Source: Saprospiraceae bacterium (GTDB taxonomy: Bacteria; Bacteroidota; Bacteroidia; Chitinophagales; Saprospiraceae). From it: a DNA stretch of 35,052 nucleotides. The first letter of the stretch is position 1. Each line of letters opens with the position of its first letter. A program made the position numbers and the translations under genes. This document shows, in pieces, positions 20,198 through 22,472 of the stretch. The DNA is taken from positions 1-35,052 of the forward strand of contig JAGQWX010000052.1 in assembly GCA_020436935.1 (NCBI GenBank), read 5' to 3'. Below the pieces are notes generated by a model. The model was not told the DNA's origin. It was given only the letters and a program-made list of their open reading frames with translations, and did not search any database.

Positions 20198-20280
20198 GCT
20201 TTAGGTGTTAGGTGTTAAGTGGCTGTTTGCGGTTAGCTTTTAGCTTTATTTGGGGAGTGGCTTTGTAAGTTATACAACCT

Positions 20281-20470
20281 TTGCCGCTTTTACCCCAGGC
20301 TCCTGAAGGGGAGATAATTTCCAGATCCCTATGCAACCTTTGCCATCTTACCCCCGGCCCCTGAAGGAGAGTTTATTTCCAAGTACCCTATGCAACCTTT
20401 GCAATCCATGCCACCTTTGCCTTCTTACACTCGGCACCTGAAGGTAAGTTTATTTCCCAGAGCCCTATGC
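20281..20470. repeat. REP-like repeat array, left part
   Basis: Three copies of an intergenic repeat anchored on CCTGAAGG at 20302, 20360 and 20437 (spacings 58 and 77 bp). Each unit runs roughly CCCCGG-C(T/C)CCTGAAGGGGAG, then TTTATTTCCCAGTACCCTATG, then a run of 9-bp steps (GCAACCTTT, GCAATCCAT, GCAATCTTT) and GCCTTCTTAC. CCCC-TGAA-GGGG can form a small hairpin. Length differences between units come from loss or gain of the 9-bp steps. The array ends abruptly at CTATGC (20465-20470), where the inserted element begins, and resumes at 22119. The preceding 20198-20280 holds only TTAGGTG-like low-complexity sequence. Confidence 0.85.
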
Positions 20471-20817
20471 CTCTTCTATGTTGTCTACAAAGTTTTAATT
20501 CAGGTTTTTTTGAAATACTTTCAATTTTAGCTGAATTAGGGCATGAAGAATTTTTTGCTATGCACCTGCACATAGCCACTTTTTTGTTTTTCCCAGTTTA
20601 AAAAATCAATCTTCTGCAATCAGTCTTCTATCAGCGGTCCTTTTTATCGGCTGCAATTCTGTTGTTCATATTGAGAAGTGGGGACGTAGTCTATGCCTAG
20701 CGGTCTTCCATTTTTAAGGTGCTGCAATTGCATAATTTCGTTTGTTCCCCCTCTCGATTTGTCGAGATTGATTTTTATAAGTGTTACTCAGATAGGTTTC
20801 GTGGTTATTCAAATCGT

Positions 20818-20920
20818 AGGCCACTCCTGGGTTGTATTATTGAATCTTGTCAAGGGCGGATGGTGGCGTGGCCTTGTGTGTTGCCATCCGTTTATATACC
20901 CTTGACTGTTCAATAATACA
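20818..20920 (-). ncRNA. Candidate bridge RNA structure in the IS110 3' flank
   Basis: Three nested perfect stems lie just downstream of the transposase stop: 20833-20844 with 20909-20920 (12 bp), 20849-20856 with 20899-20906 (8 bp), and 20857-20863 with 20884-20890 (7 bp). Internal loops are 4/2 nt and a one-sided 8-nt bulge; the apical loop is 20 nt. Seven loop bases, 20868-20874 (GTGGCCT), are fully complementary to 20818-20824 (AGGCCAC) beside the stem, a possible pseudoknot. A smaller hairpin (TCTCGA-TTTG-TCGAGA) is at 20752-20767. IS110-family elements encode a guide ('bridge') RNA in a non-coding end, in the 3' end for the IS1111 branch. The strand is taken from the transposase. The structure is seen directly; its identity and true ends are inferred. 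Confidence 0.5.
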
Positions 20921-20952
20921 TGCCCATCTTTGCCTTAAGGATTTGATTAACA

Positions 20953-22035
20953 TCATTGAACGACACCTGTTTGATATACTTCCTTTGTCCTTAATACGTA
21001 CCGTATCCTACTTAGTATTTTACGCGCTATTCGTATTATAGCTTTGTTCTTGTTCATTCGCTTACATAATTCACTAAACTTTAGTGTTAGGGCAGGGTCC
21101 TGACGTATTGCTACCCAAGAACATTCTATTAAATTTATCTTGAGTTCTTTTCTTCCTCTTTTTACCATGCCTCCCGTTTTTATCTCTTCTCCCGAGGAAT
21201 ACGTTCTTGGTGCTAATCCAACATAAAGACATAATTGATCCAACGTTTTAAATCGTCCTACATCTCCTATTTGCAGCAAGAAAACCATAGCTGTCATCTT
21301 GCCTACCCCTGGTATTGTCATTATCAGCCCGAACTCCTCCTTATATCTTTCTTTTCTACTTAACTCCAGTACTGCTTTATTACATTCTTTTAGTTGACTT
21401 GACAATTCTTTACCTATTTCTATATACCGATCTATTGCTTTTTTGAACGAGCTGGCTGACACTTGTATACTATCAACCCATTTCAAATATTCTTTTGTCC
21501 ACTTACGTGATGCTTCTTCATTTATTTCTTCAGGAATCTTAATACCTATCTGGAAAAATAAGGATTTTAATCTATTTTTTGTCCTGGACAAATCCTTCAT
21601 AACTCGAATTCTTTGTCGCAATAAGGCTCTGTCTGCTTCTAATTCCTCATCTGGTATATGGATATATTCTTGCTTGGGGTCAAAATGTAAACTGCATAAT
21701 CTTCTACTGTCTACAGTGTCTGATTTCATTTGCTTGTCTTTGTTACTCCTTGGAATATCCAAAGCGTGAACTAACTTACATTCTATCCCCTTTTCCGCAA
21801 ATTCTCTACTCGCACTAAATCCACTGAAGCCTGCCTCATATAATACTCTAATTGTCGCTCCTGGATAATTATTCTTGAAATAATTTATCAATGTATGTGC
21901 ACTCGGTTCTTGGCTGAATGTCTTCAAATGATGGTGTTCATTCCTTACCGTTACTTTCCACGATTTCTTGTGAACATCAATTCCCGCATAAATTGTTTGT
22001 CCTTCAAAAGAGTTATTGTTAATTTTAAGTCTCAT
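20953..22035 (-). CDS. IS110-family DEDD transposase/recombinase
   Basis: A 360-residue recombinase from the ATG at 22035; a longer TTG-started frame reaches 22077. Numbering below is from the TTG. The N-terminal RuvC-like DEDD domain has IYAGIDVHKKSWKV (Asp34), RVLYEAGFSGF (Glu81) and KSDTVDSRRL (Asp120, Asp123). The C-terminal Transposase_20 domain has IPGVGKMTAMVFLLQIGDVG (255-274), then LCLYVGLAPRTYSSGE, whose serine (294 or 295) fits the catalytic serine of the family, and KRGRKELK. The frame is intact and full length, so the element may be active. The ATG is preferred because the upstream extension lies in a hairpin (22034-22098). Confidence 0.92.
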   Translation of the reverse strand: MRLKINNNSFEGQTIYAGIDVHKKSWKVTVRNEHHHLKTFSQEPSAHTLINYFKNNYPGATIRVLYEAGFSGFSASREFAEKGIECKLVHALDIPRSNKDKQMKSDTVDSRRLCSLHFDPKQEYIHIPDEELEADRALLRQRIRVMKDLSRTKNRLKSLFFQIGIKIPEEINEEASRKWTKEYLKWVDSIQVSASSFKKAIDRYIEIGKELSSQLKECNKAVLELSRKERYKEEFGLIMTIPGVGKMTAMVFLLQIGDVGRFKTLDQLCLYVGLAPRTYSSGEEIKTGGMVKRGRKELKINLIECSWVAIRQDPALTLKFSELCKRMNKNKAIIRIARKILSRIRYVLRTKEVYQTGVVQ

Positions 22036-22098
22036 GAGCTGAAGTTTATTAGTTATTGATTTTTTTGTCAAATTCAAGTTACTAATTCTTCAGCTCAT
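22034..22098 (-). promoter_or_regulatory. Hairpin covering the transposase start codon
   Basis: ATGAGCTGAAG (22034-22044) is perfectly inverted at 22088-22098, and the inner ATTAGT (22048-22053) is inverted at 22081-22086, leaving a 27-nt loop. In a minus-strand transcript the transposase ATG (22035-22033) lies at the foot of the 3' arm. Such a stem in a read-through transcript would hide the start codon, a known way for insertion sequences to limit expression from outside promoters. It could also act as a subterminal inverted repeat recognised by the recombinase. Confidence 0.6.
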
Positions 22099-22118
22099 CC
22101 TTCTGACAAACATACAGT

Positions 22119-22445
22119 CTATGCAATCTTTGCAATCTTTGCCTTATTACCCCGGCACCTGAAGGTAAGTTTATTTCCCAGCACCCTTTGCAATCCATGC
22201 AATCTTTGCCTTCTAACACCCGGCCCCTGAAGGGAAGTTTATTTCTCAGTAGCCTATGCAACCTTTGCAATCCATGCAAGCTTTGCCATCTTACCCCCGG
22301 CTCCTGAAGGGGAGTTTATTTCCCAGTACCCTATGCAACCTTTGCAATCCATGCAATCTTTGCCTTCTTACATCCGGACCCTGAAGGGGGAGATTATTTT
22401 CCAGAACCCTATGCAAGCTTTGCAACCCGTGCCACCTTTGCAATT
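22119..22445. repeat. REP-like repeat array, right part
   Basis: The array resumes with CTATGC-AATCTTTGC and carries four more units, anchored on CCTGAAGG at 22158, 22226, 22303 and 22380 (spacings 68, 77 and 77 bp), plus a final partial run of GCAAGCTTT/GCAACCCGT steps. Units share CCCGGC.CCTGAAGGGGAG, TTTATTTCCCAGTACCCTATG and the 9-bp steps. With the left part there are seven units. No conserved reading frame runs through it. It ends about 60 bp before the UDP-glucuronate decarboxylase gene. Confidence 0.85.
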
Positions 22446-22472
22446 CAAATTTTCATGTCTGGAGAATCCTGT

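What the first reader, a model, noticed from the sequence alone, without database searches (positions are those of the whole stretch)
20690..20952. Candidate bridge RNA with nested stem and pseudoknot beside an IS110-type transposase
Three perfect nested stems (12, 8 and 7 bp) form one hairpin directly after the transposase stop, and its loop has seven contiguous bases complementary to a flanking segment (20868-20874 with 20818-20824). This much pairing is unlikely by chance. IS110-family recombinases use a guide RNA encoded in a non-coding end of the element; here only the 3' end is long enough. The compact, pseudoknotted shape is not the layout with two large internal loops described for IS621, so it may be a distinct bridge RNA architecture or only one part of a longer RNA.
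Basis: partly seen in the sequence, partly recalled or inferred. Interest (0 to 1): 0.75.

Follow-up and report, generated by a model that had tools for sequence, protein, structure and literature searches.

The report
Shared hairpin beside IS110 bridge RNA
The hairpin is real but is not the transposon's guide RNA, which lies just beside it; the hairpin belongs to an apparently undescribed structured module that sits behind the transposase genes of four unrelated families of jumping elements.

Summary
The hairpin exists as described (stems of 12, 8 and 7 bp, 7-nt loop complement; z -5.3, 0 of 200 shuffles). It lies inside an IS110-family element on the minus strand (about 22118-20473), 32 nt after the transposase stop.

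It is not the bridge RNA. A covariance model built from 22 relatives without the window places the bridge RNA at 20752-20620, minus strand (E 4e-8). In the relatives that RNA covaries strongly, and its guide segments match the left flank and complement the right flank (0 of 20,000 permutations each).

The hairpin is a copy of a separate module: GTMAAGGS arm, TATATAAA bulge, CCCTTGAC arm, with variable covarying stems. It follows a transposase gene on the same strand in 16 of 25 full-length genomic places (IS3 7, IS256 5, IS110 3, IS21 1; not all independent). No Rfam match. The pseudoknot is not supported.

Function is inferred only: a 3'-end or insulator structure of transposase transcripts. 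In IS256 relatives simpler palindromes stand in its place in 12 of 28 loci.

The parts
20473..22118 (-). IS110-family element, from 4 nt before TATG at the left end to the AG core at the right end (ends inferred)
   Evidence: Ends aligned by hand with relatives: AG lies 4 nt before TATG at the left end and follows CATANN at the right end. Not proven by an empty site.
22119..22120 (-). AG core at the left junction (target-derived copy)
20953..22077 (-). IS110-family transposase gene (374 aa from TTG; ATG at 22035 possible, 360 aa)
20804..20951 (-).
   Evidence: 114.9 bits; the window is a training sequence
20940..20951 (-). helix P1, 5' arm (3' arm 20804-20815)
   Evidence: I7; P1 tested
20926..20933 (-). 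conserved unpaired segment GCAAAGAT of the module
20909..20920 (-). helix P2, 5' arm (12 bp; 3' arm 20833-20844); sequence variable, covaries
20899..20906 (-). helix P3, 5' arm GTCAAGGG (3' arm CCCTTGAC 20849-20856); conserved in sequence
20891..20898 (-). conserved bulge TATATAAA
   Evidence: 22 of 30 copies identical; partly by selection of the searches
20884..20890 (-). helix P4, 5' arm (7 bp; 3' arm 20857-20863); variable, covaries
20868..20874 (-). loop segment complementary to 20818-20824 (the proposed pseudoknot)
   Evidence: present but not supported by other copies
20620..20752 (-). bridge RNA (seekRNA) of the element
   Evidence: R2, built without the window: 50.8 bits, E 4.2e-8; covariation in relatives
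20727..20734 (-). right-target guide TATGCAAT (5 nt contiguous with the right flank)
   Evidence: position inferred from relatives; weak in the window itself
20691..20698 (-). left-target guide AGGCATAG (6 nt contiguous with the left flank, core included)
   Evidence: position inferred from relatives; the script's own best left-flank match in the window was another 6-nt stretch
20624..20631 (-). donor guide ATAGAAGA, identical to the right end at 20479-20472
20473..20474 (-). AG core at the right end

Best explanation
Shown by computation: the element is an IS110-family insertion sequence whose bridge RNA lies in the 3' non-coding end at 20752-20620 (minus). The hairpin at 20920-20833 is not part of that RNA's conserved fold. 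It is the centre of a separate module of about 150 nt (20951-20804) with four helices (P1 to P4), a conserved GTMAAGGS/SCCTTGAC helix, a conserved TATATAAA bulge and a conserved CAAAGRT segment. The same module sits behind the transposase gene in IS3, IS256 and IS21 elements, inside the element where the ends could be read. Inferred (about 0.3): it works in the sense strand as the 3'-end structure of the transposase transcript. It would stabilise or define the mRNA 3' end and insulate the right end, which in circle-forming elements becomes the junction that carries the transposase promoter. Other palindromes stand in its place in relatives, so it would be a generic structure and not a guide. 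In the window it would also separate the transposase message from the bridge RNA behind it.
For: Bridge RNA location. Module: 9 sequences (the window, L005 noticed by eye, and 7 of the 11 other places of the similarity search) give 26 pairs, 17 with changes on both sides; covariation score 0.502 against 0.153, 0 of 500 shuffles. In 23 distinct copies own P2 and P4 arms pair better than swapped arms (0 of 5000 each), P1 1 of 5000 (16 of the 23 were picked with the help of a model that contains P2 and P4 pairs, not P1). Context: 16 of 25 full-length genomic places follow a transposase gene on the same strand, with four kinds of Pfam transposase domain. In L038, L061, L064 and L066 inverted repeats that beat shuffled controls put the module inside the IS, its end 32-42 nt from the right repeat; two IS256 copies, L039 and L048, share sequence to the same right end. 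Strand: the sense strand scores above the antisense (window 114.9 against 20.1 bits; training sequence). Replacement: 12 of 28 IS256 loci with at least 60 nt of flank carry another inverted repeat (score 14 or more, 0 of 30 shuffles) that begins within 40 nt of the stop.
Against: No function was tested. No T-tract follows the hairpin on the transposase strand, so it is not a textbook intrinsic terminator. In the window, L003, L029 and L011 an extra stretch lies upstream of the bridge RNA; if the bridge RNA comes from the transposase transcript, as proposed for an IS1111 element (PMC11187229, section 3 part 2), a full stop there would harm the element. Of the 25 places, 6 have no transposase that I could see on either strand and 3 lie at transposase 3' ends on the opposite strand (by eye). 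The 16 are not all independent (L039/L048 and L061/L064/L070 are related IS256 copies), and three lie far from the stop or behind a broken gene (L005, L058, L060). Phage-like contigs carry it away from transposases. Many IS copies carry no module: R1 found it in 2 of 33 IS110-homologue loci (window and L005) and 3 of 28 IS256 loci show its core. No random-position control was run.
Confidence: 0.75

Rival explanations
1. The hairpin is the bridge RNA, or an essential part of it, in a new pseudoknotted architecture.
For: It lies in the long 3' non-coding end of an IS110 element and folds strongly.
Against: Another segment of the same end has the bridge RNA fold and the guide and donor matches. 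The hairpin type occurs in IS3, IS256 and IS21 elements. It stands before the bridge RNA in the window and after it in L005 and L060. The pseudoknot is not conserved.
Confidence: 0.04
2. The module is itself a mobile or exchanged parasite that hitch-hikes in the non-coding ends of insertion sequences, with no benefit to them.
For: Near-identical cores of about 50 nt occur in IS256 (L061, L064, L070) and IS3 (L062, L066) elements. In L062, L065 and L066 an open frame of the transposase gene runs into it. It is absent from most relatives.
Against: Low copy number (1 or 2 places per genome in the 18 genomes); mostly one orientation and one place relative to the transposase; simpler palindromes stand in the same place in relatives.
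Confidence: 0.25
3. It acts as DNA: a hairpin or cruciform on one strand used in replication or circle formation of elements that move by circular intermediates.
For: IS3, IS21 and IS256 share the figure-of-eight and minicircle pathway (PMC3299598, abstract); conserved unpaired segments lie on one strand only.
Against: IS110 elements use another chemistry (recalled); no protein common to all is known to me; nothing was tested.
Confidence: 0.15
4. It is a processing site (for example for RNase III) that releases the bridge RNA from the transposase transcript.
For: In the window it lies between the stop and the bridge RNA; it has long double-stranded helices.
Against: In L005 and L060 it lies after the bridge RNA, and 13 of the 16 transposase-linked places are in families not known to me to have a bridge RNA.
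Confidence: 0.12

Closest known systems
Bridge RNA / seekRNA of IS1111-type elements (PMC11208160, PMC11187229)
   Same: RNA in the 3' non-coding end; a right-flank complement precedes a left-flank match, the order reported for IS1111 seekRNAs; donor segment equal to the right end; two guide regions, each with a small hairpin.
   Different: This concerns 20752-20620, not the hairpin. Transposase length of 360-374 aa is outside the 330-350 aa given for IS1111 transposases; end repeats were not measured. Siddiquee et al. also mention IS110-family members with a downstream NCR, so group membership is open.
IS621 bridge RNA (IS110 group)
   Same: Two guide regions with target and donor complement; recombinase related in sequence.
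   Different: IS621's RNA is in the left end; here it is in the right end, with the target guides in the order reported for IS1111.
3'-end RNAs of other transposons (omega RNA of TnpB, recalled; RAGATH-18-derived RNA behind IS607 TnpB, PMC11061315, listing only)
   Same: Conserved RNA directly behind a transposon gene.
   Different: The R1 module follows DDE and DEDD transposases; none of the 19 proteins scanned gave a TnpB hit; its variable parts pair with each other, and I ran no guide test on it.
Transposase-resistance motif (Weinberg et al. 2010, PMC2864571, table only)
   Same: A candidate RNA named for transposase genes.
   Different: Marked as a possible cis-regulator and without an Rfam number in that table, so my Rfam scans do not test it; not compared here.

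Membership tests
IS110-family element | DEDD_Tnp_IS110 and Transposase_20 domains | tested here: met
   PF01548 43.7 bits, PF02371 76.8 bits, both above cut-off
IS110-family element | no target duplication; short core shared by both ends | tested here: inconclusive
   AG at both junctions in the window and most relatives with both ends read, GG at both in L025; core differs between ends in L014, L022, L029/L035 and L031, and is not AG at the right end of L009 and L010; no empty site compared
Bridge RNA (20752-20620) | conserved fold with compensatory changes | tested here: met
   in 22 relatives (16 of 17 pairs with double changes; 0 of 500 shuffles); window hit by left-out model; several window pairs are non-standard there
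Bridge RNA (20752-20620) | guides matching target flanks and donor | tested here: met
   across 20 and 24 elements (0 of 20,000 each; wrong-sense controls 590 and 4609 of 20,000; own match strictly best in only 4 of 20 and 6 of 24); donor (5-nt matches chosen by context, no permutation). In the window alone the target matches are short (6 and 5 nt)
Bridge RNA (20752-20620) | RNA bound by the transposase and needed for movement | not testable with these tools
   needs RNA-protein experiments
Bridge RNA (hairpin 20951-20804) | same conserved fold as relatives' bridge RNA | tested here: not met
   no hit in the hairpin up to E 5
Bridge RNA (hairpin 20951-20804) | conserved position in homologous elements | tested here: not met
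   extra stretch in the window; R1 in 2 of 33 IS110-homologue loci
IS1111 group | subterminal inverted repeats of 7-17 bp, long right end with RNA | tested here: inconclusive
   long right end with RNA met; end repeats such as TATGTTTGAAAAA / TTTTTCAACATA seen by eye in L005 but not measured
Known RNA family (Rfam 15) | score above gathering threshold | tested here: not met
   (one group II intron hit elsewhere); permissive scans searches gave only sub-threshold hits outside the module
Intrinsic terminator | GC-rich hairpin followed by a T-tract on the transcribed strand | tested here: not met
   no terminator-like site on the minus strand in 20400-22200 (consensus scan)

The most novel reading that the evidence does not exclude
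Unrelated circle-forming insertion sequences (IS3, IS21, IS256, IS110) carry one and the same structured RNA at the 3' end of their transposase genes, swapped between families and recognised by a host factor through the TATATAAA bulge and CAAAGRT segment: a shared control device of the mobilome that has no known counterpart.
Probability: 0.3. Interest if true: 0.85.

Novelty: new variant of a known kind. Interest (0 to 1): 0.6.

Why it matters
The bridge RNA located here, with donor guides found in 27 elements, gives a ready set of 3'-end bridge RNAs from a lineage with longer transposases. More surprising is the module. Transposases of four families carry the same folded element behind the gene, and near-identical module cores occur in different families. 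Either insertion sequences share a control device through the host, or a small structured element parasitises them. Both are testable by removing the module.

Tried and rejected
Pseudoknot: tested by swapping loops and 3' strands among 21 copies; own 4.43 bp against 4.32 swapped, 1679 of 5000 permutations as good; with G-U pairs 3903 of 5000; 14 long-loop copies alone 1506 of 5000. Rejected as a conserved feature.

Canonical terminator: no T-tract. High-copy REP-like repeat: two R1 hits in the window's genome, no second copy of the 3' end or of its 19-nt core at up to 3 mismatches. DNA similarity in the plasmid and phage collections: none at E 0.1.

MAFFT alignment of the module's P1 and P2 arms is imperfect because linker lengths differ, hence the swap tests, in which the best stem of a copy was not always at the expected place. 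The structure of A1 was derived from A1, which favours it.

Rows dropped. Seeds of the module: of the 12 places I left out L041, L045, L046 and L047 (short matches). Swap tests: of 30 copies I left out 7 near-duplicates or partial copies. Guide test: L026 and L033-L035 left out as near-duplicates, then elements without a usable flank: left flank 20 of 26, right flank 24 of 26. Of L001-L035, L007 (no right end found), L015 (truncated), L016 and L021 (duplicates), L023 (no bridge RNA recognised) and L033-L035 (copies of L029) are not in the 27. Ends were read by hand; in rows with several ATANN matches I took the one in the GACYGCT-like context, and L011 has one mismatch. The left-out bridge RNAs L009 and L010, and L069, were not hit by R2. 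Shuffles keep dinucleotides only approximately, those keep single bases only.

Papers: PMC11208160 (passages, section 12), PMC11187229 (outline and abstract, passages, section 3 part 2), PMC3299598 (abstract, passages), PMC2864571 (passages, table); others seen in search listings only. That the module is not in print rests on Rfam and searches in an open-access library only.

Full report
What was checked. The finding names a hairpin at 20690-20952 beside an IS110-type transposase. The gene lies on the minus strand at 22077-20953 and carries the two IS110 domains; the only two solved sequences that match it are the ISCro4 and IS621 transposases. Read on the minus strand, the hairpin has arms of 12, 8 and 7 bp, an 8-nt bulge TATATAAA and a further outer helix. 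The region folds better than each of 200 shuffles (plus strand as given).

The element. Homologues came (loci L001-L035). Their left ends read AG-NNNN-TATG and their right ends CATANN-AG, with exceptions. By that pattern the window element runs from about 22118 to 20473. It is flanked on both sides by copies of one genomic repeat. Four copies in G804 (L029, L033-L035) support the ends. The 3' non-coding end is about 480 nt. No empty site was compared.

The bridge RNA. In 29 of 31 listed rows, copies included, a match to the right-end bases ATANN was found inside the 3' end in a usable context (L011 has a mismatch, L023 none assigned). Five bases alone are often chance; the context made the choice and no permutation was run on it. 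Taking this as the donor guide, the stretch before it is comparable among 27 elements. Across 20 elements with a readable left flank, the longest match of the left flank to that stretch averages 5.90 against 4.75 for swapped pairs. Across 24 elements the reverse complement of the right flank gives 6.46 against 4.83. Neither is reached in 20,000 permutations. The wrong-sense controls are reached 590 times (left) and 4609 times (right). The own match is strictly the best in only 4 of 20 and 6 of 24, so the signal is statistical. The best cases include L032 (10 nt right, 7 nt left) and L030 (9 and 7). The order, right-flank complement first and left-flank match second, is the one reported for IS1111 seekRNAs (PMC11187229, passages).

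An alignment of 22 of the 27 (A3; without the window, L006, L009, L010 and L026) supports 17 pairs: 87.4% of cells paired against 71.0% in shuffles, 16 pairs with changes on both sides, covariation 0.483 against 0.216, 0 of 500 shuffles; sliding by one to three columns destroys it. The model R2 made from it finds 20752-20620 in the window (50.8 bits, E 4.2e-8). Its next hit there is at E 0.67, elsewhere, and it has none in the hairpin up to E 5. It also finds the left-out L006, L026 (a near-duplicate of a training sequence) and L060, but not L009, L010 or L069.

In the window itself the target matches are short: GCATAG on the left (6 nt with the core) and GCATA on the right (5 nt). Because the target is a repeat, the left guide AGGCATAG matches the right flank over 8 nt and the right guide complements the left flank over 8 nt (control rows). 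I read this as the array having GCATAG on both sides, not as evidence for the window's exact target.

The hairpin is something else. In 23 of 27 elements the donor guide lies 78-194 nt after the stop; in the window 321, L003 301, L029 300 and L011 266. The window's extra stretch is the hairpin. Strong inverted repeats (score 12 or more, above all 30 shuffles) occur in 10 of 26 elements, two before the bridge RNA and eight after it. A similarity search of 298 genomes of the same family with the hairpin gave matches in 11, the window's own included, some of them short and chance-like. Of the seven good ones used below, four lie behind transposases seen (L038, L040, L043, L048) and a fifth behind one seen (L039).

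Nine sequences (the window, L005 seen by eye, and seven) align into a module of about 150 nt with 26 pairs, 17 with changes on both sides; covariation 0.502 against 0.153, 0 of 500. The helix GTCAAGGG/CCCTTGAC hardly varies and so says nothing for or against pairing. The model R1 gave matches in 18 of 298 genomes of the family, own included, and, besides the window's genome, in 5 of the other 202 genomes of a phylum sample, three of these only to the hairpin part.

After removal of three opposite-strand repeats of the same places there are 25 full-length places (23 at E 0.01, L140 and L141 at E 0.001). Of the 25, 16 follow a transposase gene on the same strand: IS3 in 7 (L038, L043, L058, L062, L065, L066, L141), IS256 in 5 (L039, L048, L061, L064, L070), IS110 in 3 (window, L005, L060) and IS21 in 1 (L040). 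Pfam domains were confirmed for 13 of the 14 copies outside the window and L005: rve or rve_3, which I read as IS3; Transposase_mut, read as IS256; IstB; Transposase_20. L039's transposase was seen by tblastn. In L058 the frame stops 240 nt before the module and in L060 229 nt; in L005 the bridge RNA lies between. Some of the 16 are close relatives of each other. Three more (L063, L069, L071) lie at a transposase 3' end on the other strand, by eye. Six (L042, L044, L057, L059, L068, L140) have none that I saw. No random-position control was run.

The module is inside the elements where the ends can be read: inverted repeats that beat shuffled controls flank it in L038, L061, L064 and L066, 32-42 nt from the module's end; L043 and L093 only just beat the control, and L040, L048, L058, L062, L065 and L141 do not. 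Two IS256 copies share sequence through the module to the same right end (L039, L048). Near-identical cores occur in IS256 (L061, L064, L070) and IS3 (L062, L066) elements. Of 28 IS256 loci with at least 60 nt after the stop (of 30 held), 12 carry another palindrome there (inverted-repeat score 14 or more, 0 of 30 shuffles), 3 show the R1 core, and the rest weaker repeats or none.

The pseudoknot. Swapping loops and 3' strands among 21 copies gives 4.43 own against 4.32, with 1679 of 5000 permutations as good. Helices P2 and P4 pass the same kind of test (0 of 5000) and P1 nearly so (1 of 5000). The P2 and P4 tests are favoured because 16 of the 23 copies were picked with the help of a model containing those pairs; P1 was not in the model.

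How it may work. The families that carry the module share circular intermediates: for IS3, IS21 and IS256 see PMC3299598 (abstract), which also describes the junction promoter of IS2 (passages); for IS1111 elements see PMC11187229. I infer that a structure between the stop and the right end would define the mRNA 3' end and shield the junction from transcription round the circle. The sense strand carries the conserved unpaired segments, which favours a role in the transcript or in one DNA strand. Against a plain terminator stand the missing T-tract and the bridge RNA downstream of it in the window. A hitch-hiking parasite is the main rival.

What is known. The bridge RNA part is a new member of a known kind. 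For the module I found no Rfam family, no plasmid or phage DNA match and no paper in the open-access library.

Noticed in passing
window 20280-20470 and 22130-22460: Array of genomic repeats (GCAAAGATTGCATAGGGTACTGGGAAATAAACT...) on both sides of the IS110 element; the element sits inside it.
   Followed up: partly
L112, L115, L118, L131 (3' of IS256 transposase): Long palindromes with the tip TTCCGGCCTACGGCCTCCA or its complement directly after the stop; another palindrome type with an AAGCCC..GGGCTTTT-like tip occurs in IS256 (L116, L125) and IS110 (L002) elements.
   Followed up: partly
L004, L030, L032 and L017-L019, L029 (3' ends of IS110 elements): Other shared segments (with GTTACACTGG, or CAAGTTGCTCC..GCAGAGCC-like) beside the bridge RNA, possibly further structured modules.
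   Followed up: no
L081 11100-11239, 12720-12855, 13942-14077: Three R1 copies in one 14-kb stretch of a viral contig; two near-identical ones flank a two-gene unit, like cassette borders.
   Followed up: no
L142, L143, L144, L086: Only the GTCAAGGG-TATATAAA hairpin part, behind what look like phage genes in genomes of another family and in a viral contig.
   Followed up: no
L029 994-1070: Group II intron match (RF00029, 43.8 bits) close to one of the four IS110 copies of G804.
   Followed up: no
L014, L022, L029, L031, L035: The core bases differ between the left and right junction, although the bridge RNA carries AG in most; tolerance or decayed flanks.
   Followed up: no
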